A stretch of DNA of 64,000 bases from Acidobacteriota bacterium. GTDB lineage: Bacteria; Acidobacteriota; Terriglobia; Terriglobales; Acidobacteriaceae. The translations under genes and the position numbers were made by a program. Positions 6,140 through 64,000 of the stretch are shown piece by piece. The notes below the pieces were generated by a model that ran no database searches, had not been told where the DNA came from, and was given only the letters and a program-made list of their open reading frames with translations. The stretch's first letter is position 1, and each line of letters starts with the position of its first letter. Location of the stretch: positions 1 through 64,000 of the forward strand of contig JARLGJ010000048.1 of assembly GCA_031296105.1 (NCBI GenBank), in the 5' to 3' direction.

Positions 6140-6790
6140 TCAATTATCTGAGGATGCATTCCAACCCTCCAGGGTGATTCCGGAAACTGCAATTGGCATG
6201 CCGTTTGGTAATTTTTTTTCAGACGTCTCGACGACAATTGATCTACCATCGCGTAGATAAATATTCCAGACCAGTCCGAAAGGCATAGATGTGTCTTCTA
6301 TCTTCCTGCCCTTGCTGAAAACCAACCTGTCAACATATTTGAGCTGTGGGGTTTTCGATTCACAGGACAACGACCCGTTTTCAATTACGCCAGCATAATG
6401 TTGAATGAAACCGTGCCAACAGTGATCTTCGTCGCACAGACTGGTTGGCAGATCTAAATCTCGGAGAGAATTTCCGAGTTCTTTCCGAAAAGTATTCAGC
6501 CGCAGGAGATTTTTGAACAAATAAGCGTCTTTGATCACATCCTCAGATTGTGTGACAACCCTCTCAGCAAAGTCATCGACCTCTTGGAGAAACGAGATCG
6601 TCGTATTTTGGCGGTCCAAGTCAATATGTAATGCCCAGTGGCAGTAAATTTTCAAAGCAAGTGGCATCGTATTAAGCTGGTATTTATCCATGAGCTTCCG
6701 CAGTTCACAAAGTATGTAAACTACTTGGCACTCACTGTTTATACCTTCAGATAGTACTTTTCGCAGCTTTTCAACAATCTGATCTTTCAT
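6140..6790 (-). CDS. Hypothetical protein, low-GC orphan (216 aa)
   Basis: No family recognised. The protein is mostly helical in its first 110 residues (KLRKVLSEGINSECQVVYILCELRKLMD, then FLQEVDDFAERVV) with a strand-rich C-terminal third. No signal peptide or membrane segment is seen. Base composition is clearly lower in GC than every neighbour (many AAA, ATT and TTT codons), which suggests recent transfer. It follows nfo by about 14 bases on the same strand and could be read from the same mRNA. ATG at 6790 is preferred because GAGGAA sits at proper spacing; the ATG at 6796 is too close to it. Confidence 0.75.
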   Translation of the reverse strand: MKDQIVEKLRKVLSEGINSECQVVYILCELRKLMDKYQLNTMPLALKIYCHWALHIDLDRQNTTISFLQEVDDFAERVVTQSEDVIKDAYLFKNLLRLNTFRKELGNSLRDLDLPTSLCDEDHCWHGFIQHYAGVIENGSLSCESKTPQLKYVDRLVFSKGRKIEDTSMPFGLVWNIYLRDGRSIVVETSEKKLPNGMPIAVSGITLEGWNASSDN

Positions 6791-6804
6791 AGCCATTCCT
6801 CAAA

Positions 6805-7746
6805 CTACGGTTTCACCACGCTCTTCAGTATCTCGATGTTCTTCAAATCGTCCAGAGGGGCGTCAATCGGCGTCTCCAGCAAGAACGCCGCGTGCCTATT
6901 GCGCGGGTCGTTGAGCAGGCGGCGGAAAGGTTCCAGCCCCATGGTTCCCTGCCCGATGTTTTCGTGACGGTCCAGCTTCGAGCCCCGCGCGGCCTTGGCG
7001 TCGTTGCAGTGCCACACGCGCACCTCTGGCAGTCCCACGGTGGAATCCAGCAATTGCATGGTCTCCGCGTAGCCTGCCTCGGTCACCAGGTCGTAGCCCT
7101 TCACGTGGGTGTGGCAGGTGTCGATACAGGCGGCCGTGGGGATAATCTTCTTCAACGCGGCAATCAGTTCGGCCACGCTCTCAAAGCTCGATCCCAGCGA
7201 GAACTCGGCTCCAGCGGTGTTTTCAATCAGCAAGGTGAGGCCGTTTGCGGCCATCTCCAGACCGTCGGCGGCGCGAGCGATGGCCGCGGTGGCGTTGGCC
7301 AGTCCCTCTTCGCGCGACAGGCCGCGGAAGCTGCCCGGATGCAGCACCACGTACTCGGCCTTCAGGGCAATCGCCCGCTCCATCTCCGCCCGCAAGGCGC
7401 CAATGGATTTCTCCGTAATCTCCGCGCTGGCACCGGCCACGTTGATGAGGTAATTGGCGTGGATCACCAGCGGCCGCAGGTCGTACTCGTGGCGCAGGCG
7501 CAGCATGGTCTCGCACTGCGCGGCGGAGACGTCGAAGGGCTTCCACATGCGCGGGCTGCTGCTGAAGATTTGCAGGGCGTTGCAGCCCAGCCGCCAGGCC
7601 CGCTCGGCGGAGGTTTCCACGCCTCCGGCGGTGGAGGCGTGAATGCCCAACCGTATCCCCTTCAGCTGCGGACGGTGCTCCGAGGCGGGAATCAGCTTGA
7701 GAATGTCTTTTTCGTTGGCAGAGGGAGTTTTGGCGGCCCTTGGCAT
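6805..7746 (-). CDS. nfo: Endonuclease IV, AP endonuclease (313 aa)
   Basis: Cleaves DNA at abasic sites during base excision repair, using a TIM barrel with three metal ions. Visible family motifs are GIHASTAGG, VIHANYLINVAG, VVLHPGSF, LLIENTAG, CIDTCHTHVKGYD and VWHCNDAKAARGSKLDRHENIGQG; these supply the usual His, Glu and Asp metal ligands. A basic extension of about 30 residues (KTPSANEKDILKLIPASEH) precedes the barrel. ATG at 7746 is chosen because the open frame upstream runs through intergenic hairpin repeats and carries no conserved residues. Confidence 0.93.
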   Translation of the reverse strand: MPRAAKTPSANEKDILKLIPASEHRPQLKGIRLGIHASTAGGVETSAERAWRLGCNALQIFSSSPRMWKPFDVSAAQCETMLRLRHEYDLRPLVIHANYLINVAGASAEITEKSIGALRAEMERAIALKAEYVVLHPGSFRGLSREEGLANATAAIARAADGLEMAANGLTLLIENTAGAEFSLGSSFESVAELIAALKKIIPTAACIDTCHTHVKGYDLVTEAGYAETMQLLDSTVGLPEVRVWHCNDAKAARGSKLDRHENIGQGTMGLEPFRRLLNDPRNRHAAFLLETPIDAPLDDLKNIEILKSVVKP

Positions 7747-7801
7747 GGAGAGATTGTAGGGCGGAAGCCGTAGGAAACCAACTGGTTCCATCCCTGACGG
7801 T

Positions 7802-7967
7802 GTGCCCCAGGTTCGACGCGCGTATTCTGCGCGGCTAACCTGGGACGGTTGTCCTGTTTGAGAAATGTTCCTCTCCCAGGTTAGCTCGCTGCGCTCGCGA
7901 ACCTGGGGCACAACCCGAACCTGGGGTACAACCCTGAACCTGGGGCACAACTCTGAATATGGGGCAC
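7802..7967. repeat. CCCAGGTT-family repeat cluster between nfo and rpsA
   Basis: One full copy in plus orientation (7802-7844) and one in minus orientation (7875-7911) face each other. Three partial tandem tails follow to 7967, with a 19-base unit like CCTGAACCTGGGGCACAAC. The cluster fills most of the space between the divergent nfo and rpsA genes. The gene start regions themselves (7747-7801 and 7968-8025) lie outside it. Confidence 0.85.
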
Positions 7968-8025
7968 TTTGCCGGGGCGATGGTATCCTTACTGGATAGC
8001 TCCTATTTAGAGGCATTCACCTTTC

Positions 8026-9717
8026 ATGGCTAACCCGAACGATCCGGAAATCCAGCCCACCCAAGAGACCAACGAGTCCTTTCAGGACATCCTCGCCGAG
8101 TTCGAGAAGTCGCACTCGCATAAAGCCGAGAAGGGTTCGACCCCGCAGCGTGAAGGCACCGTCGTTTCCATCAGCGACGAATCCGTTCTGCTCGACATCG
8201 GCTACAAGACCGAGGGCATCCTGCCGCGCAAGGCGTTCACCACGGAGGAGACCGTCGCCGTGGGCGACAAGATCGCCTTCTCCGTCAAGGGACGCAACCC
8301 CGACGGCTACTACGAGCTCTCGCGCATGAAGGTGGCCACCCCCACCGACTGGTCGGCCCTGGAGAAAGCTTTCGCCGAGAAGACGCCGATCCTGGGCACC
8401 GTCACCGCCGTCATCAAGGGCGGCCTCAGCGTGGACGTGGGCGTGCGGGCCTTTATGCCCGCCTCGCGCAGTGGTGAGCGCGACGCCGCCAAAATGGAAA
8501 AGCTGGTGGGCGAGCAGATTCGCTGCCGCATCATCAAGTTGGATACGGCCGATGAAGACGTGGTGGTGGACCGCCGCAGCGTCATCGAGGAAGAAGAGCG
8601 CGTGGTGCGCGAGCGCCGCTGGCACGAGATCGTCGAGGGCGACACCCTCAGCGGCACCGTCCGCTCACTGACCGACTACGGCGCCTTTATCGACCTCGGC
8701 GGCATCGACGGACTGCTGCATGTCAGCGACATGAGCTGGGGACGCGTCAGCAAGCCCAGCGACGTGCTCACGGAAGGCCAGCAGGTCGAGGTCAAGGTTC
8801 TCAAGGTCGATCAGGAGAAGAAGAAGATCTCACTCGGCCTCAAGCAGCTTCAGAAGCATCCGTGGGACGCGGTGCCGGAAAAGTTCAAGGTCGGTGAAAA
8901 GGTCAGCGGCACGGTTGCGCGCCTTACCGACTTCGGCGCCTTCGTCGAACTGGAGCCGGGCATTGAAGGCCTCATCCACATCTCGGAGATGTCCTGGAGC
9001 AAGAAGGTGCGCAAGGCCGCCGACCTGCTCAAGCCGGGCGAGACGGTGGAGACCGTCATCCTCGGCATCAATCCCGGCGAGCGCCGCATCTCGCTTGGCC
9101 TCAAGCAGGCCCTGGGCGATCCCTGGACGGACGCGGCACGCCAGTTTGCCGCCGGCACCATCGTCAAGGGACCGGTCACCAACATCATGAAGTTCGGCGC
9201 CTTTGTGCAACTGGCCGAGGGCGTGGAAGGCATGGTGCACGTCAGCGAGATCTCGGCGGAAAAGCGCATCGAGCATCCGCAGGACGCGCTGAAAGTGGGG
9301 CAGGAGGTCGAAGTCCTGGTGCTGGCCCTCGATTTGGAGAAGCGCCAGATCAAGCTGAGCATGAAGCAGTTGGTCCCCACCGGACTCGATGAGTACATCG
9401 CGGAGCACAAGGTGGGCGACACGGTGACGGGCCGTCTGCTGGAAGACACCTCTTCGGCACATCCGCGCGTCGAACTCGGCGAGGGCATCCTGGCCATCTG
9501 CACCGGCAAGTCACCGGCGGCGGCTCCCACGGAAGCTCCAGCCCCGTCCACGGGCGCGGCCGATCTCAGCGCGCTCAGTGCCATGCTCAAGGACAAGTGG
9601 AAGTCCGGTTCGGTGCCCGAGGCGCGGCCGCAGCAGGCCAAGGCCGGCCAGATCCGCAGCTTCCGCATCGTCAAGCTGGACGCGGCCGCCAAGAAGATCG
9701 AAGTCGAGCTGGCGTAG
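8026..9717 (+). CDS. rpsA: 30S ribosomal protein S1 (563 aa)
   Basis: mRNA-binding ribosomal protein built of OB-fold S1 domains. Five clear domains are present, starting near residues 43 (REGTVVSISDESVLLDIGYKTEG), 122 (GTVTAVIKGG), 207 (SGTVRSLTDYGAFIDLGG), 292 (SGTVARLTDFGAFVEL) and 378 (KGPVTNIMKFGAFVQL). A sixth near residue 465 (GDTVTGRLLED) is degenerate and followed by an Ala/Pro-rich linker. This is like many non-proteobacterial S1 proteins. The ATG is preceded by AGAGG at rather long spacing. The gene stands alone and diverges from nfo. Confidence 0.96.
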   Translation: MANPNDPEIQPTQETNESFQDILAEFEKSHSHKAEKGSTPQREGTVVSISDESVLLDIGYKTEGILPRKAFTTEETVAVGDKIAFSVKGRNPDGYYELSRMKVATPTDWSALEKAFAEKTPILGTVTAVIKGGLSVDVGVRAFMPASRSGERDAAKMEKLVGEQIRCRIIKLDTADEDVVVDRRSVIEEEERVVRERRWHEIVEGDTLSGTVRSLTDYGAFIDLGGIDGLLHVSDMSWGRVSKPSDVLTEGQQVEVKVLKVDQEKKKISLGLKQLQKHPWDAVPEKFKVGEKVSGTVARLTDFGAFVELEPGIEGLIHISEMSWSKKVRKAADLLKPGETVETVILGINPGERRISLGLKQALGDPWTDAARQFAAGTIVKGPVTNIMKFGAFVQLAEGVEGMVHVSEISAEKRIEHPQDALKVGQEVEVLVLALDLEKRQIKLSMKQLVPTGLDEYIAEHKVGDTVTGRLLEDTSSAHPRVELGEGILAICTGKSPAAAPTEAPAPSTGAADLSALSAMLKDKWKSGSVPEARPQQAKAGQIRSFRIVKLDAAAKKIEVELA

Positions 9718-9737
9718 AAATTGCCGTATCCGGGCTT

Positions 9738-9832
9738 TGTCAGGCCACGGCTTTAGCTGTGCCGTAAATTAGCCTTCCACTATGCGGCTTCAGCCGCCGA
9801 GGGTCAGGGTCCAGGGGCGGCTTCGGCCGCCC
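9738..9832. repeat. GGCTTCAGCC-type hairpin repeats between rpsA and aroF
   Basis: Three adjacent hairpins: TGTCAGGCCACGGCTTTAGC with its arm GCTGTGCC (9738-9763), GCGGCTTCAGCCGC (9784-9797) and GGGCGGCTTCGGCCGCCC (9815-9832). The first matches, with wobble changes, the ends of the element at 43764-43921. The rest of this gap shows only the short aroF leader, with GAGGTAACC before the ATG. Confidence 0.8.
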
Positions 9833-9907
9833 TTGGCTTTTTCTCCCGGCTTTGCGCGTTGCCGCCCTTCTGCGGCTTCGTTAGACTAAAGACTCTGTGA
9901 GGTAACC

Positions 9908-10978
9908 ATGCTGATTGTCATGCAGTCCAAGGCCACGCCCGAGCAGGTGCAGTCCATCTGCGAGCGCATTGAGAGTTTCGGATTCCGCGCCCATCCCATC
10001 GAAGGCACGCAGCACTTTGCCGTCGCCGTCACCGGCGACCTGCGCGGCATTGAGACCTGCGGGCTGGAGGAGATGCCCGGCGTGCAGGAGATCGTGCGCA
10101 TCAGCAAGCCCTACAAACTGGCCGGACGCGAAAGCAAGCCGGAAAATACCGTCGTCCGCTTCGCCAACTCCGACGTCACCATCGGCGGCGACGAGTTCGC
10201 CATCATCGCCGGACCCTGCTCGGTGGAAAGCCGCGAGCAGACGCTGCACATCGCGGAAAAGGTGGCCGCCTCGGGCGCGCGCTTCTTCCGCGGCGGAGCC
10301 TACAAGCCCCGTACCTCGCCCTACGCCTTCCAGGGCATGGGCGTCGAGGGCCTCAAAATTCTCGCCGAAGCGCGCGAGCGCACCGGCATGTTGATCGTCA
10401 CCGAGGCCGTGGACATCGAGGCCCTGGAAGCCATCGAGGACTACGCCGACATGATTCAGATCGGCGCCCGCAACATGCAGAACTTCTCCCTGCTTAAGCG
10501 CGCCGGACGTTCGCCTTTGCCGGTGCTGCTCAAGCGCGGCCTCAGCGCCACCCTGGAAGAACTTCTGATGAGCGCCGAGTACATCATGAGCGAGGGCAAC
10601 CGCAACGTGGTGCTCTGCGAGCGCGGCATCCGCACCTTCGCCGACCACTCGCGCAACACGCTGGACCTCAGCGTGATTCCCGCCGTGCACAAGCTCAGCC
10701 ACCTGCCCATCCTCAGCGATCCCAGCCACGGCACCGGCAAGCGCGACCGCGTAACGCCCCTGGCGCTGGCTTCGGCCGCCGTCGGCGCCGACGGCCTCAT
10801 CGTCGAGGTGCATCACGACCCCGAACGCGCGCTCTCCGACGGGCCGCAGTCCATGTTCCCCGAGCAGTTCGCCAACATGGTTTCGCAGTTGCGCGGCATT
10901 CTGCCGGTGGTCAAGCGCACCCTCAGCACCGAGCCTTTAAAGCCGCGGCCGGCGGCAACCCAGGCGGCCTGCAAGTGA
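9908..10978 (+). CDS. aroF: 3-deoxy-7-phosphoheptulonate (DAHP) synthase, type I-beta (356 aa)
   Basis: First step of the shikimate pathway: condenses phosphoenolpyruvate with erythrose 4-phosphate. Residues 1-75 form the ferredoxin-like regulatory domain of the Thermotoga-type enzyme (MLIVMQSKATPEQVQSICER). The barrel follows with IIAGPCSVESREQ, RGGAYKPRTSPYAFQG, IQIGARNMQNF, KRGLSATLEE and ILSDPSHGTGKRD. The ribosome site GAGGTAA precedes ATG 9908. Its TGA overlaps the GTG start of the next gene, so these four genes (to murB) look like one operon. The C-terminal tail of about 20 residues is Ala/Pro-rich. Confidence 0.95.
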   Translation: MLIVMQSKATPEQVQSICERIESFGFRAHPIEGTQHFAVAVTGDLRGIETCGLEEMPGVQEIVRISKPYKLAGRESKPENTVVRFANSDVTIGGDEFAIIAGPCSVESREQTLHIAEKVAASGARFFRGGAYKPRTSPYAFQGMGVEGLKILAEARERTGMLIVTEAVDIEALEAIEDYADMIQIGARNMQNFSLLKRAGRSPLPVLLKRGLSATLEELLMSAEYIMSEGNRNVVLCERGIRTFADHSRNTLDLSVIPAVHKLSHLPILSDPSHGTGKRDRVTPLALASAAVGADGLIVEVHHDPERALSDGPQSMFPEQFANMVSQLRGILPVVKRTLSTEPLKPRPAATQAACK

Positions 10979-55770: not shown

Positions 55771-55859
55771 GCCGGGATGGCGAAATTGGCAGACGCAGCG
55801 GACTTAAAATCCGCAGACCAGAAATGGTTGTGGGGGTTCAAGTCCCCCTCCCGGTACCA
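55771..55859 (+). tRNA. tRNA-Leu (anticodon UAA)
   Basis: Folds as a class II tRNA. Acceptor arm GCCGGGA pairs with TCCCGGT; the D-arm contains TGGCGAAATTGGCAGACGCA. The anticodon arm is GCGGACTTAAAATCCGC with TAA at its centre. A long variable arm (CAGAAATGGTTG) follows, and the T-arm is GGGGGTTCAAGTCCCCC. The CCA end is encoded (55857-55859). It is the probable phage attachment site, as an integrase follows within about 110 bases. Confidence 0.97.
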
Positions 55860-55969: not shown

Positions 55970-57130
55970 ATGCCAAGAAGGCCGAGAGAGAAGAAACACC
56001 GGGGAGTTTTTGAGCGCGAAAGCGGAAGCGGCATTTGGTGGGTCCGCTTCATGGACCTGGACGGCAAGCGCAAGTCACGTTGCATTGGTGCCTTCAGTGA
56101 TGCCGTTGACTTCTATGAGGGTGAGAAGGTGCGCATCAGAAAGGGCGTCATTGCGCCTGTGGCGAGTCACAGAGGCATACGCTATGGCGTGCTGATTGAT
56201 GACGCGCTCACGTACAGTGAAACGTCCCACAGGGACCAACGGGTCTTTGCTCAGCGGTTGGATGTCGTCCGCGAACAGTTTGGAAATCGCATCGCAGAGA
56301 CAATCACACCGGCTGGCATTAGCGAATGGTTTGCAGCCATGGCGGATGAGCGCGGATGGACGCCCGCCACAGTCAACCGCTATCGCGCCGCAATGTCCAA
56401 GGCATTCAAGATCGGGATTCAGAATCGGAAGGTTAACAACAATCCAGCGCGGTTGGTGCCACAACGCAAGGAACCACCCGGCAAGATTCGATTCCTCACG
56501 AACGATGAAGAGAAGCGCCTAAGAGCCGCGTTGAAGGACCGGGCGTTTTGTGTGCCTCAGCTTGACGTGGCGCTCCACACCGGCATGAGGAAGTCAGAGC
56601 AATTCAGCGTGACGTGGGACCAAGTGGACTTCGCACAGAAATATATTCATCTGGACACAACAAAGAACGGCAGTGACCGTTACGTGAGCATGAATTCTGA
56701 AGTGTTGCGGACGCTCCAGGCCCTCAAAGAAACGCACAAGCGCCTTAGTCTGCCCGGAGACTCCACGCTGTTTGTATCGGGCCAAGGAAAGCCGATGTCA
56801 GACCCGCGTGAGTGGTTTAATGCCGCGTGCGATGAAGCCAAAATAGAGGGTGTGACGTGGCACACGCTCCGTCACACGTTTGCGTCTCGCTTGGTGATGG
56901 CCGGGGTTGACTTGAAGACTGTCCAAGAGCTGATGGGACACAAAACAATTGCAATGACGGCACGTTACGCACACCTTTCACCGGCGCACAAACTGTCAGC
57001 CCTGGAGCGGCTTGTCACCACCCGCAAGCGGGGCCGGGTGGTGGCCACGCGCAAAACGGACCAACTCAGAGTGAGGAATAAGCGTTCTGGAGCCAATGCG
57101 CCGGAAGTGAATCTCACCCCGCGCGAGTAG
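55970..57130 (+). CDS. Tyrosine-recombinase phage integrase (386 aa)
   Basis: Site-specific recombinase for integration at the tRNA-Leu gene. An arm-binding-like N-terminus (GVFERESGSGIWWVRFMDLDGKRKS) and a core-binding SAM-like domain precede the catalytic domain. Catalytic residues are visible: Arg in ALHTGMRKSE, the HxLRH box as HTLRHTFAS, the second His in LMGHKTIAMTARYAH, and Tyr in the same segment. It appears intact. ATG 55970 has GGAGG at good spacing; a TTG six codons earlier is less likely. It reads away from the tRNA, and its 3' end overlaps the opposite-strand HTH gene. Confidence 0.95.
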   Translation: MPRRPREKKHRGVFERESGSGIWWVRFMDLDGKRKSRCIGAFSDAVDFYEGEKVRIRKGVIAPVASHRGIRYGVLIDDALTYSETSHRDQRVFAQRLDVVREQFGNRIAETITPAGISEWFAAMADERGWTPATVNRYRAAMSKAFKIGIQNRKVNNNPARLVPQRKEPPGKIRFLTNDEEKRLRAALKDRAFCVPQLDVALHTGMRKSEQFSVTWDQVDFAQKYIHLDTTKNGSDRYVSMNSEVLRTLQALKETHKRLSLPGDSTLFVSGQGKPMSDPREWFNAACDEAKIEGVTWHTLRHTFASRLVMAGVDLKTVQELMGHKTIAMTARYAHLSPAHKLSALERLVTTRKRGRVVATRKTDQLRVRNKRSGANAPEVNLTPRE

Positions 57131-57208
57131 GTAGGTTAGGCCGCGTGGACTAATGCTCAGCATCCGCGCGGCAGTCTTCCGGTCATACAAGAGCCGGGTT
57201 TCCGTCAT
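56996..57208 (-). CDS. Small helix-turn-helix protein, excisionase-like (70 aa)
   Basis: A single MerR/excisionase-type winged helix: LLYDRKTAARMLSISPRGLTYLLARGEIHFRRIGSRTLIPHSELVRFARGH. This fold is common in phage excisionases and in small regulators next to integrases. ATG 57208 has GAGGTT upstream. It converges on the integrase gene and overlaps its last 135 bases, so the two mRNAs are antisense over that span. Confidence 0.75.
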   Translation of the reverse strand: MTETRLLYDRKTAARMLSISPRGLTYLLARGEIHFRRIGSRTLIPHSELVRFARGHHPAPLAGGDKPLQG

Positions 57209-57448
57209 CGTGTGAACCTCTATGTATGCACTTGTGAGGGTCATTCTCTTGATTACACGTGACTTGGCTTCCTTTATGGTTGAATGGTAGGATGACTGAA
57301 TCGTGGGGATAATTAACAACAAAACTGTGTCTTTTATACCACTTTTTCGAAATTATTCTTGTTTGTGTAAGTAAATGGATTGCGGCGCCTTATCTCAGGG
57401 TCATGTTAGAGATTTAGACCCACCCCTATGCCATTGATTACAAACCAC
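57209..57448. other. AT-rich intergenic region upstream of the excisionase-like gene
   Basis: No gene seen. It is clearly AT-richer than the host and should carry the minus-strand promoter of the small HTH gene. A stretch TTAACAACAAAACTGTG with ATAATT nearby (57309-57330) is suggestive but not decisive. Confidence 0.45.
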
Positions 57449-57901
57449 TTAGAAGAACCACACCTTCTTGGGTGCGAGTGTATCCTTGGCGCACACATCC
57501 GGCCACTGTCCACTGTGCCGCTTGTCCTCATCCGTCTTGGCTCTGTGGCACACACGGCACAGCCCTTGCAGGTTGCTCATGATGTACGCGCCCGCATACT
57601 TGTCCATCTTGTATAGTCCGCTGTCCTGTGCCTGGACTATTGCAACGCCAATAGGGACAATGTGGTCCACGATGACAGACAGCTTGCAACGGCATCGGGC
57701 ACACATAGGCTGACGGCGGAGCACCATTGGGCGGACACGCTTGGTCCAACGTTCGCTTGTGTAAACCCAACCGTACCGCTCACGGTCACTGACCATAGCC
57801 TTAATGCCGTCATCATTCGCTGTCTGTGGTTTGCACTCATCACAGAAGCGCACGTCATCAGGTACAACGCGGAGGCAACCGGCACCACTGCATATTCTCA
57901 T
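57449..57901 (-). CDS. HNH endonuclease, phage type (150 aa)
   Basis: Metal-dependent nuclease of the kind found beside phage terminases. The N-terminus has a zinc site (CSGAGC and FCDEC). The HNH core follows: CARCRCKLSVIVDHIVPI, then NLQGLCRVCHRAKTDEDKRHSG. The central DHIVP supplies the catalytic His. AGGTG lies upstream of ATG 57901. Here it is at the integrase end of the element, far from the capsid gene. Confidence 0.88.
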   Translation of the reverse strand: MRICSGAGCLRVVPDDVRFCDECKPQTANDDGIKAMVSDRERYGWVYTSERWTKRVRPMVLRRQPMCARCRCKLSVIVDHIVPIGVAIVQAQDSGLYKMDKYAGAYIMSNLQGLCRVCHRAKTDEDKRHSGQWPDVCAKDTLAPKKVWFF

Positions 57902-57934
57902 TTTGGCGCACCTATTAGTTTATAAGTTGTACGT

Positions 57935-57978
57935 CTCACTCTCGGTCTTGGGAGGAATAGGATTTGACCGAGCGTGAG
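57935..57978. repeat. 13-base inverted repeat inside the phage element
   Basis: CTCACTCTCGGTC (57935-57947) and GACCGAGCGTGAG (57966-57978) match with one mismatch across an 18-base spacer. It lies between the HNH gene and the HTH-like gene. No T-run, so an operator or processing site is more likely than a terminator. Confidence 0.5.
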
Positions 57979-58051
57979 CGGAGGGAGAATACTTTTCCTC
58001 ACTCTTATGTTAAGGCAGTTTATTTCATGTGTGTTTTTGTGCCTATCCACA

Positions 58052-58480
58052 TCATTCCATTGTAGATACGTACTTAATCGTCATCCAAATACGGTGCACA
58101 TTTTGCAAACTGCATTTGATACGGCGCTCACGGAGCTGCTTGTGTATCTTCCAAGACGGCTCACCCATGTGCTCCCGGACAAACCGGATTGCCCGCTCAT
58201 CAACGTCTTTGGGCATTGACGGCACCTTGAAAAACTGACGGCGCTCATACATCCACCTTTCCGGGTGGTCCTGATGGGGCCCAACGGCTTTCAGAACATT
58301 ACGCAAGACGGCAACAGATGCATCCGGGTTTGCGGCCAACAACAGATAGGCAAAGCCGGGCGTGTCCCGGTAGGCCAGAATGTCTGGAATGCGCGTCTGC
58401 ACGCTCACCGTCTTATTCTTGGCACCACCAAGACCGCGCCCGTCTGTCACGTCAACTTTGATGAGTTTTGGTCTGCCCAC
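58052..58480 (-). CDS. Phage protein with C-terminal helix-turn-helix, function unknown (142 aa)
   Basis: Not assigned to a family. The C-terminal part (DERAIRFVREHMGEPSWKIHKQLRERRIKCSLQNVHRIWMTIK) reads as a DNA-binding HTH like those of small terminase subunits or resolvases. The N-terminal part is basic. GTG 58480 overlaps the upstream stop (TAGTG), suggesting coupled translation; an open frame continues 28 codons upstream to a TTG. A small terminase subunit is a candidate because of the neighbouring HNH gene, but this is unproven. Confidence 0.6.
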   Translation of the reverse strand: MGRPKLIKVDVTDGRGLGGAKNKTVSVQTRIPDILAYRDTPGFAYLLLAANPDASVAVLRNVLKAVGPHQDHPERWMYERRQFFKVPSMPKDVDERAIRFVREHMGEPSWKIHKQLRERRIKCSLQNVHRIWMTIKYVSTME

Positions 58481-58893
58481 TAGACGCCACGCACGCCACG
58501 CTTCCGTGGCTTCTTTCCTTGCCTCAGTTTTGCTAAAGCGGCCACGTCCGGCGACACAATACAAGCCGTCCGGCTGCGCCCCGCGTCCTTACTTTGCAAG
58601 CCATACACGATTACGTCATCTTCCCGTTCCTGCTTGAGCCGCGCCAAGACACCTTCATCGCCTAGGAATGCTAGACCTAGCCGAAAGGCCATTTCAAAAA
58701 CGCCCTCCACAGTCACGTTAACCCCGACATGCCTAGCGTGCAGCATGGCGCGGTGAAATTGCACGGCGGTTGCATCTGACCACCCGCTGTCAAATATCTC
58801 GGCAAGCTGCTTTTCATCACTTTCACACGTGTTCACTTGCTCTTCAGTGAGTGATGTTAGGAAGGCTTCCATGCTCAATGCTTGGTCATCCAT
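58480..58893 (-). CDS. Phage hypothetical protein (137 aa)
   Basis: No family recognised. Acidic, helical N-terminus (MDDQALSMEAFLTSLTEEQVNTCESDEKQLAEIFDSG), a middle part with AVQFHRAMLHARHVGVNVTVEGVFEMAFRLGLAFLGDEGVLARLKQE, and a very basic C-terminus (RQGKKPRKRGVRGV). ATG 58893 has TAGGAG at good spacing. It lies 3' of the tape measure gene on the same strand. Confidence 0.65.
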   Translation of the reverse strand: MDDQALSMEAFLTSLTEEQVNTCESDEKQLAEIFDSGWSDATAVQFHRAMLHARHVGVNVTVEGVFEMAFRLGLAFLGDEGVLARLKQEREDDVIVYGLQSKDAGRSRTACIVSPDVAALAKLRQGKKPRKRGVRGV

Positions 58894-58988
58894 CTGTGTT
58901 CTCCTAGTCTCTTTTAATGCTCTGCAATCGCACACTAAGGCACCGTGGACGCGTTGCTGGAATGCCGGTGAGATACCAGCACGGCTTT

Positions 58989-61157
58989 TCACCTGTTCAT
59001 TTTTCTTAGTGTGGCTTCAAAGTGCTTTTGGAATTTGCCTGAGTGCTTCTCAAGCACCTTGTCCATGCCGTCCGCATCAAGCGCGGATGCGTGCATGTGC
59101 ATGTGCATGGTGACGTGAGCGCGCGGGCCTTGGTCAAAGCCACCGCTCCGGGCCATGTTGCGGAGGCCATCCATGACGCCTCCAGGGACAACGCCTTCAC
59201 CCGGTGAAAGCATCGCGGGCACGGTGTCACCACGGCCCACACCGGGAACACTATCGGTGCCATTCGCAAAGCCGGTGACAGTTGAAAAGGCCAACGCAGC
59301 AAGAATTGGGGCCAAGTAGGGTGCCGTTGGGCCGCCGTTTTCCAAGCCCCAAGTGTAGGCTTTGCGTGCTGCTTTGGCCGCATCTGATTCCTTGCCTATT
59401 GCATTGGCTTCCGCCGTTTTTATGGCGTTCTGAATCGCGCCACTAACAACTTGGTCACCTAGGGACAGAAGCATGTGGCTCCACGTCTGATGACCCATGA
59501 TGGACCTGGTTAGCTCACTGTTAACGCTGTTATTAAATTGCGTGAACGCACCAAGTACCTGCTTGTTGGTAGCAATCTCTGCTTTTTCGCGGATGGCTGC
59601 TATTTCGTTTGCGTGCTGTTGGGTGAGCTGCTTTTCCTTGTTCTGGAGCTGCTTGAGTTTGTTTTCATAATCCTTGCCCGATTGGTCAAGCCCATTCAGC
59701 TCTTTCTGAAGGGCAGTCCACTTGATGATGTACTCAGAGTTGGCAAGGTTTATCTCTTGCTGGATGCGCTCTTCCATGGAGACACGGCGGGCGCTGTTTT
59801 CCATCTCCAAGTATTGCTTGGCGGCAGCAAGTTGCATCATGCCGGATTTTTCCATGTTAGAGGCTTCCTCTTTGGCTGCCTCCGCTGCTAGCTTGCCTTC
59901 CTCTTCCGCCGCTTCCCGGACGGCTTGCACACGTTCTTTTAACAGACTCCGGTAGAAACCCGTTGCCTGAAGGCCCTTGCTGTTCTCTTCCTTGATGGCT
60001 GAGTCAAGAGCGGAGATGCGTGCGGAACTGCCACTCCGAGTGTTCTCAATCTTCTCCCGCTCACTTTCCTGAAGCGCATTAAGAGCCGTCCTGTAAGCCT
60101 CTTCCCTCAGCTTTTCCGCCTCTTCAAGTTCTTTTTTCTGTGCGTCCGCTTGTGCCTTCCACTGCTTCTCTTGGTCCGCGTCTTCCCGGTTGCCCTCTGT
60201 CTGCGTTGCAATGCTACTCTCCAGCTTCTTGATGTCTAGGCTCCGCTGGTGCGCCGCAACCATGGTTTGCAGGGCCGTTACTTGAACTATTTGCGCCTGG
60301 ATTGCCTTGTCATCGTAGTCCACGCCCAACTTCTTGAGAGCAATCCGGGCTTCCTCAAATTTGTTATAGTCTCCACCTTTGCCCACGTCCGGCGCGGCTT
60401 GACTCGCTACAATCTGCTTTTGAAGGGCAAGGATTTTCTCTTCCCGTTTCACTTTTTCGTCTAAGAGGTCGTTGGCACCTTTTTCATCCTTGTTAGCTAT
60501 CAGTGCGTCCCACTGAATCTTGAATGATTCCAATGAGTGCTTGGCACCCGCCGCGCCCGCGCCGAATTGATACCAGCTCGTTGTAAGAGGGCCAAAAGAG
60601 AGGTCTGCCGCTTTTGCCACTTCCTCAAAGGACTTGACCAGCTCTTTCATGCTTTGGTGGTCAATTAGTTTCAACTGTTTTTCAAGGGCAGATAGATGGT
60701 TGCCATTCAATTCGTCAGACCTTATTCCCGCCTGGAGAAGTCTGTCATCCAAGGCATTGAGGACGTTAGCGCATGTGGTCCCAAAGTTGACTTGACTGTC
60801 TGTTAGCTTTTCACTGGCCTCACGCATCTTTCCTAAGTGTTCCAACAACAGCGTTGCACCAACGGCAATGGCTAGGAACGGGAAGGCTGCCTCAAGTGCT
60901 CCGCCAATAGGTCCAATGCTTGCGATGAAGGATGTGAGAGCGCGGGGAAGATGGACGCCAAACTCTTCGCCCAACATCATTACGGAGTGGCGTGCCTCCA
61001 CCATGGAGTAATTGACGGAGCCACCCATCTCACCGGCCCCGCTCTTGATGTCCGTGAAGCTGCCACGGGCGGCCTTGGCCGCATCAGCTAAGCCGGTTTG
61101 AAACGTGGCAGTTTTTGTCTGGAGATCGACGCTCAGAATCCACACAGGTTGGGCCAT
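58989..61157 (-). CDS. Phage tail tape measure protein (722 aa)
   Basis: Sets tail length and forms the DNA channel. The early segment FIASIGPIGGALEAAFPFLAIAVGATLLLEHLG is hydrophobic. Long charged coiled coils occupy residues 240-580 (many KKELEEAEKLREEAY-type runs). The C-terminus shows the usual Gly-rich signature FANGTDSVPGVGRGDTVPAMLSPGEGVVPGG, followed by a His/Met-rich VTMHMHMHAS. With the rough 1.5 angstrom per residue rule the tail would be about 100-110 nm (inference). It lies directly downstream of the capsid gene, with a terminator-like hairpin between. Confidence 0.85.
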   Translation of the reverse strand: MAQPVWILSVDLQTKTATFQTGLADAAKAARGSFTDIKSGAGEMGGSVNYSMVEARHSVMMLGEEFGVHLPRALTSFIASIGPIGGALEAAFPFLAIAVGATLLLEHLGKMREASEKLTDSQVNFGTTCANVLNALDDRLLQAGIRSDELNGNHLSALEKQLKLIDHQSMKELVKSFEEVAKAADLSFGPLTTSWYQFGAGAAGAKHSLESFKIQWDALIANKDEKGANDLLDEKVKREEKILALQKQIVASQAAPDVGKGGDYNKFEEARIALKKLGVDYDDKAIQAQIVQVTALQTMVAAHQRSLDIKKLESSIATQTEGNREDADQEKQWKAQADAQKKELEEAEKLREEAYRTALNALQESEREKIENTRSGSSARISALDSAIKEENSKGLQATGFYRSLLKERVQAVREAAEEEGKLAAEAAKEEASNMEKSGMMQLAAAKQYLEMENSARRVSMEERIQQEINLANSEYIIKWTALQKELNGLDQSGKDYENKLKQLQNKEKQLTQQHANEIAAIREKAEIATNKQVLGAFTQFNNSVNSELTRSIMGHQTWSHMLLSLGDQVVSGAIQNAIKTAEANAIGKESDAAKAARKAYTWGLENGGPTAPYLAPILAALAFSTVTGFANGTDSVPGVGRGDTVPAMLSPGEGVVPGGVMDGLRNMARSGGFDQGPRAHVTMHMHMHASALDADGMDKVLEKHSGKFQKHFEATLRKMNR

Positions 61158-61182
61158 AGAATCCTTCTTTCATGAAATTGTG

Positions 61183-61229
61183 AAAAAGCCCGGCCCTGAT
61201 GGTCTCCCCACACATTAAGGCCGGGTTTT
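61183..61229 (-). terminator. Terminator between capsid and tape measure genes
   Basis: Stem AAAACCCGGCC / GGCCGGGCTTTT on the minus strand (61184-61195 with 61219-61229), then TTT. It lies after the capsid stop (61319) and about 25 bases before the tape measure start, so the latter needs read-through or its own start. Confidence 0.75.
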
Positions 61230-61318
61230 GGAAGGTCGCACACAGATGAGATGAGACACCATGGCAGATGCTCATGCCGGGCTGTGTGCGGGAAAGCGCC
61301 CCGGCAATTTGTTATGCC

Positions 61319-62677
61319 CTACTGCAACGCGCCGGAGGGCAGAACTGTGTAGAAGACTGGCTGATTTGTGGGCGGATTGGTTGCACCTACCAACTCCGCA
61401 AGGAAGTGGTTATCACCCCACGTGGTAGCAACAAAACCCACGGACGTATTGGTTGCCCAATACAGCTCTTGGAGAATGCGCGTGATGATAGGCGTGCGCC
61501 GCAACCATGCGCCCTTGTTCCAATTGCCGTATGCCACGAATCCCGCGCCGCAAACAGCGTCAAAGAATTCATTGACCACATACGGGCGGCCAAGAATGGT
61601 GTCCGATTCAGGGTCAAACATCGGCACGCCTGAGGTGGTGGCGCGGCTGTTGCGGACAATTGCCAACGTGGAGCGGGACAGCATGAAAGAGTTGGTTGGC
61701 TCTTCCAAGCCTTCCACGAGCGCGTGACGCAATGCCGTGAGCTGCCCGTACACATCTGCGGTGACACTGGAGCCACCAATCTGGAGCGGAGCAAGCCCGC
61801 CAATGATGGTGAAGTTGGGCGGAGCGGTGAGCGCGGAGAACAGAGCCGTGGTTGCGGACTTTGTTAGCGCGTTGGCAATACTCACAAGCAACTCATCAAC
61901 AATCATCGGCTGTAAGGGAGTCTCAGTGCTCATGAGGCTCTCGTAATCAGCGATAACTTGACGGCTCTGCTTGTAGGCACCAAACGTGAATCCACTCAAC
62001 CCCATGGGTTGCGACGTGCCTGATGCCGGTCCCTGCCCTTCGGAATACGCGGTTGGAACGGCCCCCGCCGAAAGAATCGGCAGATTGATGCTCCGCATGT
62101 GGTCTGTACTGATGATGGAGGACCCGGCCTTCTCAAACGGACTAAAGGCAAAGTAACTCTTCATGAACGGCAGAATTTGAGTTGGCACAGCAAAACCCAC
62201 GCTGTCCAGGCCCGTGCCGCTGCCCACGCTGATAATGCCGGAAGGACTGGAGGCTTCCATTGCTCCAGACTGTTGGTATTCAGCGTCAGTGCCGGTGCCG
62301 GGCATTTCCATGCCGGTGAGACTCCCCACACCGCGCCGCATCCAGGCACCAAAACGGTTTTTTAACGCGGAAGCCTTTGGATGGTCCAGCGTCACATTCT
62401 TTAGGGCGTTGCCTTCGTCATGCTCTGCCGCGCCTTTACGGACAGCGCTGCCGTCCATAAGCGCAACCGGGTCAAACTGACGGATGGTGCTCATGGCCTC
62501 ACGCTCATTGATTTGCGCCTTAAGTTCTAACTCTTTGCTGAATGCGGCCTGATAGTCAGCACGCTCACTGTCAGTCATCGACCTGCCACCGGCTGCCCTT
62601 GCATCTTCTAGCAGTGTTTCTTTCTTGCTAATGGCCTGTCTGAGTTCTTGTTTCATTTCAAACAATTTCATGGACAT
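61319..62677 (-). CDS. HK97-type phage major capsid protein (452 aa)
   Basis: The N-terminal 115 residues form a helical scaffold (delta) domain (LFEMKQELRQAISKKETLLEDARAAGG...AAFSKELELKAQINEREA). The HK97 core follows with FAVPTQILPFMKSYFAFSPFEKAGSSII, NLPILSAGAVPTAYSEGQGP, the A-domain segment TNSFMLSRSTLAIVRNS and DTILGRPYVVNEFFD near the end. It would form the icosahedral head after cleavage of the delta domain. No protease gene is visible in the window; it may lie beyond the right edge. Confidence 0.88.
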   Translation of the reverse strand: MSMKLFEMKQELRQAISKKETLLEDARAAGGRSMTDSERADYQAAFSKELELKAQINEREAMSTIRQFDPVALMDGSAVRKGAAEHDEGNALKNVTLDHPKASALKNRFGAWMRRGVGSLTGMEMPGTGTDAEYQQSGAMEASSPSGIISVGSGTGLDSVGFAVPTQILPFMKSYFAFSPFEKAGSSIISTDHMRSINLPILSAGAVPTAYSEGQGPASGTSQPMGLSGFTFGAYKQSRQVIADYESLMSTETPLQPMIVDELLVSIANALTKSATTALFSALTAPPNFTIIGGLAPLQIGGSSVTADVYGQLTALRHALVEGLEEPTNSFMLSRSTLAIVRNSRATTSGVPMFDPESDTILGRPYVVNEFFDAVCGAGFVAYGNWNKGAWLRRTPIITRILQELYWATNTSVGFVATTWGDNHFLAELVGATNPPTNQPVFYTVLPSGALQ

Positions 62678-63005
62678 TTTGATAGTTTCCTTTGGATGTG
62701 AGATTCCGGGCGTACCCGGTCTTGCATCCGAAAGTCAATGTGCCGTACTAGCACATCTCTTACGGCCACACGGGGCCTTTTTACCCCGCTGGTTTGGTGT
62801 TTGTGTTGCGCACTTCCCGGTCACTCCCCAGGACCATTGGTGCTTACTCCGTCGCCTCGCAATCCAGGTACTCTGGCAGCCGTCACGGATGGCCCCAACC
62901 CTTTTTAGTTGGGCGGCACTTGACTTAAACTTTTGAGCGGCGCGGGCACTGTACGCGCCACCCAAACGGCATGGTGGAGAACACCACGCCGAAACTTGTA
63001 TGCTG
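62678..63005. other. Intergenic region upstream of the capsid gene
   Basis: No convincing gene. A minus-strand frame of 76 codons (62735-62965) starts only at TTG, has no ribosome site and is Arg/Lys-rich, so it is left out. The segment probably holds the capsid leader; the ribosome-site-like AGGAAAC lies before the capsid start. Confidence 0.5.
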
Positions 63006-63386
63006 CTAATTCACGCGGTTGTCTGGGAGGCTCATCAAGCGTCCGAGTTCCTGTATCTCCGCAGCTTCCACCTGTGCGGTAAAGCTGTCACAGAAGAGCA
63101 CGTGAATGTATGCGAGAAAGGCACCCGCAAGCGCGGAGACTTGCTCCGGCTCAAGTGGCTCTTTGAATGCACAGATTGGCTTCATATCGGAAGAAAGCCC
63201 AACCAAACCCACGGAGCGCAACCCACGTCCAGGCCAACGGGCCTTCAGATCGGCACGCATGTTTTCATCGAATGCTTTTGGCCGGATGGGAAGAAACTCT
63301 GCATCGCCGGGTGCCGCGCCCATCAGGACAAGCACCACAAGGGGACATTCAAGGGCAATCTGACTGGACTGTTCACTGTACGTCAT
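63006..63386 (-). CDS. Phage hypothetical protein (126 aa)
   Basis: No family recognised. Mixed alpha/beta with a hydrophobic segment near the N-terminus (IALECPLVVLVLMGAAPG), then LPIRPKAFDENMRADLKARWPG and a helix-rich end. ATG 63386 has AGGTGAG upstream at good distance; the frame extends 18 codons further. Same strand as the capsid gene. It and the next gene stand where portal, protease or connector genes would be expected, but resemble none by eye. Confidence 0.6.
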   Translation of the reverse strand: MTYSEQSSQIALECPLVVLVLMGAAPGDAEFLPIRPKAFDENMRADLKARWPGRGLRSVGLVGLSSDMKPICAFKEPLEPEQVSALAGAFLAYIHVLFCDSFTAQVEAAEIQELGRLMSLPDNRVN

Positions 63387-63512
63387 CGCTGTCTCACCTT
63401 TCTGAGCAAGCGTGGTCAGCCGTACAATGAAGACGGCCAATCCGCGTGCATTCCCGTGTACTCTGATTTGTGCCCGGCTCCGGTTTGGGTGACAGCCCGC
63501 CCGGAGCCTTTG

Positions 63513-63974
63513 TTATTGCTGCACGGTCCTTGATGCCAATATGTTCCTGTAGTAGTCGAGTAGCTCAAGCGACGTTCGCTTGTCATCCGCGAATTCTGTA
63601 ATCCACAAGATGACGGGCGCTTCAGCTTCTTTTGGGTCCCGGACATCTAGCTGCCATATGATTCCGACAAAATCCACGCGGGTTAATGACGCCAACTCTT
63701 CAAGCGGCGCAATGAATGCGCCGATGTTTCCTGGAGCTGGTAGCGGGTGCATCTGAATGAGCGGCCTCCCCGGAATTTCCGCACGGCAAAGAAGTGCAAG
63801 TCTGATGTCACTAGGGTCTAGGCCATATTTCTGCATCAGACCGCACGCCCGGTCTGCTTCCGTGCATAGGCGCTGGACGGCTTCAAACAGTGAGGGTAGG
63901 GCGCGTGCCTTTGGTTTCCGGCCCGCCTTGAGTTGACGCCGGACCTTCTCTGCCGGTGTTAGGGAATCCTCCAT
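63513..63974 (-). CDS. Phage hypothetical protein (153 aa)
   Basis: No family recognised. Basic N-terminus (PAEKVRRQLKAGRKPKARALPSLFEAVQRL), then an alpha/beta part with IRLALLCRAEIPGRPLIQMHPLP and VDFVGIIWQLDVRDPKEAEAPVILWITEFADD. ATG 63974 has GGACGGAAAG upstream. Complete within the window; the element continues past the right edge. Confidence 0.65.
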   Translation of the reverse strand: MEDSLTPAEKVRRQLKAGRKPKARALPSLFEAVQRLCTEADRACGLMQKYGLDPSDIRLALLCRAEIPGRPLIQMHPLPAPGNIGAFIAPLEELASLTRVDFVGIIWQLDVRDPKEAEAPVILWITEFADDKRTSLELLDYYRNILASRTVQQ

Positions 63975-64000
63975 CGCTTTCCGTCCTTCACTTCTTGCCG

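What the first reader, a model, noticed from the sequence alone, without database searches (positions are those of the whole stretch)
55970..64000. Phage element with compressed and reordered structural genes
Seen: the capsid gene is followed directly by the tape measure gene, with only a terminator-like hairpin between. No connector, neck, tail-tube or chaperone genes stand there as in usual tailed phages. The HNH and HTH (possible small terminase) genes lie at the integrase end, downstream of the tail gene. Two unknown genes sit where portal and protease are expected. Inference: a rearranged, decaying, or unusual minimal prophage, or a capsid-bearing satellite-like element with novel connectors.
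Basis: partly seen in the sequence, partly recalled or inferred. Interest (0 to 1): 0.66.

Follow-up and report, generated by a model that had tools for sequence, protein, structure and literature searches.

The report
Phage satellite with own capsid, tape-measure
This is a complete 9.9-kb phage parasite in an Acidobacteriaceae chromosome, one of a conserved family, that carries its own head-shell gene, its own tail-ruler gene and a copy of the related phages' probable DNA-packaging site, and so probably borrows every other virion part from a helper phage.

Summary
A 55-bp repeat of tRNA-Leu bounds a 9,927-bp element (contig 55800-65781); the window cut off its last 1.8 kb. Capsid (MCP) is followed directly by tape measure (TMP). 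Profiles from related phages find no terminase, portal, connector, tail tube, chaperone or tip gene in it. It is not a decaying prophage: seven att-bounded relatives in other Acidobacteriota, at various tRNAs, are 9.0-9.9 kb with the same plan (regulator, two unknown proteins absent from the phages, MCP, TMP, primase or primase-like HTH gene, integrase). Related ~40-43 kb siphophages carry homologous TMP (58% identical), HNH and MCP. Their HNH-TerS intergenic site, presumably cos, recurs beside the element's HNH gene (E 1e-19; only copy in 3.45 Mb) and in most relatives, including four not used to build the model. Best explanation: a satellite that builds chimeric virions (own shell, own TMP) with helper terminase, portal, neck and tail. 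Precedents: SaPIbov5 Ccm (capsid homologue) and V. cholerae PLEs (own TMP). The TMP-plus-MCP combination without packaging genes appears undescribed. Packaging, small heads and helper identity are untested. The supposed small terminase is a primase-related HTH protein.

The parts
55800..55854 (+). attL: 3' part of tRNA-Leu(taa) (gene 55771-55859), 55-bp perfect direct repeat; attR copy lies beyond the window at contig 65727-65781
55952..57130 (+). tyrosine integrase
   Evidence: Pfam PF00589 E 1.6e-34; PHROG 1 3e-69
56996..57208 (-). AlpA/HTH_17-type regulator or excisionase (ORF open to 57322; likely start 57208)
   Evidence: PF12728 1.2e-8; family found in most relatives, usually next to int
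57315..57440 (-). conserved non-coding site, presumptive packaging (cos) site, directly 3' of the HNH stop codon
   Evidence: homologous to the HNH-TerS intergenic site of phages G445, G446 and (held out) G449; leave-window-out nhmmer E 2.6e-17; only hit in own genome E 9.7e-20
57449..57901 (-). HNH endonuclease of the kind encoded beside TerS in the related phages
   Evidence: PHROG 144 8e-21; about 52% identical to the G444 phage HNH
58052..58564 (-). HTH protein sharing a segment with the C-terminus of the phage prim-pol primases (not a small terminase)
58480..58992 (-). unknown, relative only in L031; sits where some members have an unrelated 165-aa protein
58989..61157 (-). tape measure protein, 722 aa
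   Evidence: 58% identical to phage G445 TMP; alignment A1; genomic position in phages
61319..62677 (-). HK97-fold major capsid protein with delta-domain-like N-terminus
   Evidence: TIGR01554 3e-18; at most 29% identical to the phage MCPs, long branch
63006..63386 (-). satellite-specific protein (u63006 family, 13 satellites, 0 phages), alpha/beta fold, no known relative
63513..63974 (-). satellite-specific protein (u63513 family, 11 satellites, 0 phages), alpha/beta fold, no known relative (ORF open to contig 64019). Beyond the window the element continues to contig 65781 with four small genes (64037-64261 -, 64563-64814 +, HTH regulator 64824-65069 +, 65053-65550 +) and attR

Best explanation
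A complete, integrated phage satellite. After a helper siphophage of the Acidobacteriaceae is induced or infects, the element excises at its tRNA-Leu att sites. Helper terminase recognises the satellite's cos-like site beside its HNH gene and packages its DNA. The satellite's MCP forms, or co-assembles into, the shell, probably a small one sized for about 10 kb. Its TMP is built into tails whose tube, chaperone, neck and tip come from the helper, giving virions chimeric in both head and tail. Shown: element limits, gene content, absence of packaging, neck and tail-tube genes, conserved family plan, homology of TMP, MCP and HNH to one phage group, shared non-coding site. Inferred: that the site is cos, that helpers are of this phage group, that heads are small, and the chimeric assembly.
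For: Exact att repeats, 9,927 bp. No TerL, portal, neck, tube, chaperone or tip profile hit in this element or in 15 relatives; protease only in two, L021 and L034. Eight att-bounded MCP+TMP elements including this one, 9,008-9,940 bp, mean 9.70 kb, SD 0.33 kb, at tRNA-Leu, Thr, Ser, Pro, Val and Lys. Two protein families in 13 and 11 satellites and in no phage. TMP 58% identical to phage G445 while MCP is at most 29%, as expected if the TMP must fit helper tails while the shell diverges. Satellite and phage TMPs are intermixed on the tree, at least three changes forced. The site lies HNH-site-TerS in phages G445, G446 and held-out G449 and HNH-site in the window (E 2.6e-17 leaving the window out); it is found in four held-out satellites and otherwise mostly marks further integrase/primase elements. 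Precedents: SaPIbov5 Ccm, an MCP homologue, redirects head size (PMC8569155); PLE satellites build chimeric tails with their own TMP, and tmp deletion cuts transduction by 96-99.9% (PMC12987554).
Against: No induction, packaging or virion data. No related helper prophage is held in this genome: the only portal found is on contig C30, in a prophage of another type. No satellites were among the IMG/VR contigs found, which are ordinary phages. Two family members, L026 and the truncated L035, lack a detectable site, and seven of eight further phage records searched, most of them fragments or more distant, show none. The site could be a promoter or operator rather than cos.
Confidence: 0.72

Rival explanations
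1. Remnant of a siphophage prophage: deletions removed terminase to portal, MCP to TMP, and the tail tip, leaving a decaying relic.
For: Every element gene with a known relative (int, HNH, MCP, TMP, regulator, primase-like HTH) has kin in the related phages, roughly in circular phage order.
Against: The same gene set is found at six different tRNA types with intact ORFs and a narrow size range; two satellite-only families are kept; the non-coding site is kept. Independent decay would not converge on this.
Confidence: 0.08
2. The satellite makes no small heads; it packages as a concatemer (about four copies, 4 x 9.7 = 38.8 kb) in full-size helper heads, and its MCP and TMP act mainly as poisons of helper assembly.
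For: Four element lengths come close to the helper-type genome size of 40-43 kb; PICMI satellites package concatemers without remodelling heads (PMC10803314 abstract).
Against: A full MCP kept in 12 satellites is more than an inhibitor needs; TMP keeps full length and both ends. Volume scaling from T=7 to T=3 gives 11.1-12.0 kb, also consistent with 9.0-9.9 kb.
Confidence: 0.12
3. The TMP is an entry passport: it lets satellite DNA into cells whose exclusion or defence proteins recognise the helper's TMP. The chimeric tail exists for delivery, not for assembly control.
For: TMP is the phage protein associated with inner-membrane passage and is recognised by injection-stage defence (SNIPE, PMC13190303); some members carry TMP without MCP (L028, L035, L069, L071); TMP lengths overlap the phage range, so shorter tails are not the aim.
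Against: Compatible with the best explanation rather than exclusive of it.
Confidence: 0.25
4. A cf-PICI or autonomous minimal phage with unrecognised portal and terminase.
For: It has MCP, HNH and a cos-like site; some cf-PICIs also encode TMP (PMC12987554 Extended Data Fig. 10).
Against: No ORF large enough for TerL or a portal remains unassigned in 9.9 kb; phage-derived profiles find none.
Confidence: 0.02

Closest known systems
Vibrio cholerae PLE satellites (PMC12987554)
   Same: satellite-encoded TMP with helper parts otherwise; expected chimeric tail
   Different: PLEs also encode a tail assembly chaperone, remodel the helper's capsid instead of carrying an MCP, and parasitise a lytic phage with a contractile tail; homology of the TMPs was not tested
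SaPIbov5-type cos SaPIs with Ccm (PMC8569155)
   Same: satellite-encoded HK97-fold MCP homologue with delta domain and no portal; cos packaging
   Different: only Ccm was found as a satellite protein in those particles, no TMP; Ccm needs helper CP to form shells, untested here; different host phylum
Capsid-forming PICIs (definition as in PMC10690885; TMP-bearing ones in PMC12987554 ED Fig. 10)
   Same: own MCP, HNH, small integrated element; some carry TMP
   Different: cf-PICIs encode portal, connectors, protease and both terminases; this family has none of these except a protease in two members
PICMI satellites of Vibrionaceae (PMC10803314)
   Same: minimal gene content, dependence on helper packaging
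   Different: PICMIs carry no capsid-remodelling gene and package concatemers
Acidobacteriaceae siphophages G444, G445, G446, G449 (IMG/VR)
   Same: homologous TMP, HNH and MCP; primase, regulator and HNH-site-TerS order in those members where each was available
   Different: 28-43 kb records with terminase, portal, neck and tail genes

Membership tests
phage satellite (general) | small integrated element with int and att sites | tested here: met
   9,927 bp between 55-bp tRNA-Leu repeats, tyrosine integrase
phage satellite (general) | lacks genes needed to form and fill virions alone | tested here: met
   no TerL, portal, neck, tube or tip by profile
phage satellite (general) | carries a packaging signal of the helper group | tested here: inconclusive
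   site shared with phages G445, G446, G449; that it is cos is inferred from position
phage satellite (general) | mobilised by a helper phage | not testable with these tools
   needs induction or infection experiment
capsid-forming PICI | encodes portal, connectors and both terminase subunits besides MCP | tested here: not met
capsid-forming PICI | encodes MCP and HNH | tested here: met
Ccm-type capsid redirector | MCP homologue encoded without portal | tested here: met
Ccm-type capsid redirector | changes helper head size by co-assembly | not testable with these tools
   needs particle analysis
PLE-type tail chimera | satellite-encoded TMP | tested here: met
PLE-type tail chimera | satellite-encoded tail assembly chaperone beside TMP | tested here: not met
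   no similarity of u63006 or u63513 to the phage chaperone profile, no chaperone profile hit in the element
autonomous prophage | complete head, packaging and tail modules | tested here: not met
   element complete to attR

The most novel reading that the evidence does not exclude
An Acidobacteriaceae satellite family whose virions are chimeric in both head and tail: the satellite supplies shell and tape measure, the helper everything between and below. TMP is carried even without MCP in some members, which would mean that changing the tape measure (for assembly priority or for passage into defended helper lysogens) matters more to these satellites than changing the head; the two satellite-only alpha/beta proteins would be the factors that favour satellite shell and TMP over the helper's.
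Probability: 0.4. Interest if true: 0.78.

Novelty: new variant of a known kind. Interest (0 to 1): 0.63.

Why it matters
Satellite-encoded tape measures were first reported in 2026 in cholera PLEs, and their benefit is unknown. Here a distant bacterial family shows TMP as a recurrent satellite gene, paired with a lone capsid gene and, in most members, the related phages' presumptive packaging site, in elements of nearly constant size. That makes it possible to ask, in soil bacteria such as Granulicella and Terracidiphilus, why satellites replace the tape measure. The conserved non-coding site also works as a probe that finds further satellites of this group.

Tried and rejected
(1) Single-sequence searches with MCP found nothing in IMG/VR or INPHARED and only distant HK97 proteins in relatives; TMP was the useful probe, although it too has no match among INPHARED phages. 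(2) u63513 as a viral-contig probe and u63006 as a single-sequence genome probe: nothing beyond the window itself. (3) Fold searches of the two unknown proteins, modelled well (pLDDT 85.5 and 89.4): no match at E <= 0.001 in PDB (both) or BFVD (u63006 only); the weak MPN-domain hit of u63513 has TM 0.31 and no conserved catalytic residue, rejected. (4) u63006 as a missing tail chaperone: no profile similarity, and it also occurs with MCP but no TMP in L126; left open. (5) Shorter tails: rejected as a general aim, satellite TMPs span the phage length range. (6) Prophage on contig C30 as helper: different type, incomplete contig, cannot tell. (7) TerL Pfam PF03354 in own genome: none. (8) u63513 and u63006 as one family: not supported by profile comparison, although both models show the same helix-strand order.
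Full report
WHAT IS THERE. The window is G000:C5:1-64000 of a contig that ends at 66509. A tRNA-Leu(taa) gene stands at 55771-55859. Its 3' 55 bp are repeated perfectly at 65727-65781, so the element runs 9,927 bp from repeat to repeat. G+C is 0.54 against 0.62-0.65 in host stretches of equal length. Genes: integrase (+); then on the minus strand, read from the right: a 74-aa protein (contig 64037-64261), u63513, u63006, MCP, TMP, u58480, a 170-aa HTH protein, HNH, an AlpA-type regulator; and at the right end three small genes on the plus strand (contig 64563-65550), one an HTH regulator divergent from the capsid operon.

THE OBSERVATION. MCP is an HK97-fold protein. The 722-aa downstream protein matches no family library, but has full-length relatives in 28-43 kb phage contigs and shorter fragments from IMG/VR, where it stands between the neck/chaperone genes and the distal-tail genes, the place of a tape measure protein. 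Those phages have the ordinary order HNH-TerS-TerL-portal-protease-MCP-adaptor-joining-terminator-tube-chaperone-neck-TMP-distal tail-tip; PHROGs confirms TerS, TerL, portal, terminator, major tail and neck proteins. Profiles for these functions find nothing in the window element or in any of 15 related satellite loci, all ORFs of 40 aa or more in six frames; within the elements only a prohead protease appears, in L021 and L034. The missing genes are truly missing.

A FAMILY, NOT A RELIC. A TMP profile found relatives in GTDB genomes titled Acidobacteriaceae, Granulicella, Terracidiphilus, Terriglobus and Candidatus Sulfotelmatobacter and in 27 of 399 genomes of the class at E <= 0.001, many of those weak hits or ordinary prophages. 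Many strong hits lie in small elements with one plan: regulator divergent from [u63513 - u63006 - MCP - TMP - sometimes an extra protein - primase or primase-like HTH] and an integrase, mostly next to a tRNA gene. Direct repeats give lengths of 9,927 (window), 9,851, 9,871, 9,940, 9,008, 9,865, 9,373 and 9,781 bp at Leu, Thr, Ser, Pro, Val and Lys tRNAs (statistics). One relative with a protease and unidentified extra DNA is 15.6 kb. One with MCP but no TMP is 9.2 kb. Four (L028, L035, L069, L071) have TMP but no MCP; L035 is cut by its contig end. u63006 (13 satellites) and u63513 (11) occur in no phage examined. Intact ORFs at 45-65% identity, at different sites and in a narrow size range, argue against independent decay of prophages.

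THE PACKAGING SITE. The intergenic stretch between HNH and TerS in phages G445 and G446 has homologues in most satellites. A profile made without the window finds a single site in the 66.5-kb contig, 57315-57440 on the minus strand, E 2.6e-17, next best 5.1, with nothing comparable in shuffles. It begins right after the HNH stop codon, as in the phages. The full model (R1) hits nothing else in the 3.45-Mb genome. It finds four satellites that were not used to build it: L069, L071, L027, L032. It also finds a held-out 42.9-kb phage, G449, with the order HNH-site-TerS, and among 399 genomes of the class its good scores are all in Acidobacteriaceae, with only marginal hits outside that family. 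Of the new loci read, most carry integrase, AlpA and/or primase (L125-L128, L130-L132, L134), two carry primase alone (L133, L135), one carries a TerS of the phage type (L129), and the weakest (L136) shows nothing. I read the site as cos, from its position beside HNH and TerS. A regulatory role is not excluded.

HOW IT LIKELY WORKS. Shown: a self-contained integrating element with capsid and tape measure genes, an HNH gene and a presumptive packaging site of one phage group. Inferred: a phage of that group supplies terminase, portal, neck, tail tube and tip, and the satellite supplies shell and tape measure. Two features fit. The TMP is 58% identical to a phage TMP and satellite and phage TMPs are intermixed on the tree, as if the TMP must keep fitting helper tails. 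The window MCP is only 29% identical to phage MCPs and sits on a very long branch, as if the shell had changed; several other satellites have MCPs 50-58% identical to phage ones. A T=3 shell scaled from a T=7 shell holding 40-43 kb would hold 11-12 kb, enough for 9-10 kb; this is arithmetic, and four copies in a full-size head would fit as well. The stem-loop between MCP and TMP may keep TMP expression low relative to MCP; the terminator scan does not support it statistically.

KNOWN RELATIVES IN KIND. SaPIbov5 Ccm is an MCP homologue that redirects helper head size (PMC8569155). PLE satellites of V. cholerae put their own TMP into helper tails and transduce poorly without it; [quoted passage not shown] TMP identity goes with the route through the inner membrane and TMP is recognised by injection-stage defence (PMC13190303), so a private TMP might also help entry. 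Membership in cf-PICIs is excluded by their defining portal, connector and terminase genes (definition in PMC10690885). I found no description of Acidobacteriaceae satellites or of the MCP+TMP set without packaging genes in the open library; subscription papers were not searched.

THE UNKNOWN PROTEINS. 63006 and 63513 are predicted with confidence (pLDDT 89.4 and 85.5), both as helix - two strands - helix - two strands - helix, without a match in solved structures, viral models (63006 only) or PHROGs, and no similarity to phage head or tail profiles. Neither shows a conserved catalytic pattern. They may be assembly factors that favour the satellite's shell and tape measure; this is a guess. 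58052 shares a segment of about 45 residues with the C-terminus of phage prim-pol primases. 58480 is nearly private to this element (one relative, L031).

LIMITS. Gene calls outside the window rest on a simple ORF picker plus profiles. The loci are drafts. Helper identity is inferred from shared genes and the site, not observed. The TMP is assigned by position and homology, not by a curated family.

Noticed in passing
contig C5 65890-66509 (L002 10890-11509): Right after attR stands a C-terminal fragment of another tyrosine integrase (minus strand) and an AbiEii-like reading frame (recognised by eye), suggesting a second or older element in the same tRNA; the contig ends there.
   Followed up: no
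L028 14576-14698; G103:C2:171242-171424; G307:C5:567742-567927: The presumptive packaging site occurs as an inverted, overlapping pair in some satellites.
   Followed up: no
L129 (G304:C3) 6562-10046: A locus with the site and a TerS homologue of the phage type but no recognised TerL: perhaps a satellite that redirects packaging with its own TerS.
   Followed up: partly
L127 5193-14568; L132 700-11150: tRNA-Pro-bounded elements of 9.4 and 10.5 kb with the site and a primase but no MCP or TMP; L132 carries frames that look like a DNA methyltransferase and a DUF262 protein (by eye).
   Followed up: partly
L085 562-635 and L029 14163-14235: A second conserved non-coding stretch (84% over 74 bp) between primase and HNH in a phage and near the site in a satellite; possibly a replication origin.
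   Followed up: no
L034 1488-17172 (Granulicella aggregans M8UP14): A 15.6-kb member with prohead protease, MCP, TMP and full prim-pol primase, and a large unassigned frame between MCP and TMP: a good laboratory candidate.
   Followed up: partly
G000:C30 (L098): The same genome holds a 16.6-kb contig of a different tailed prophage (portal PF04860 E 6e-47); helper role unknown.
   Followed up: partly
L023 (G189:C1): A cf-PICI-like element in the same host family: TerS-, TerL- and portal-like genes, MCP and integrase but no tail genes recognised in the stretch read.
   Followed up: no
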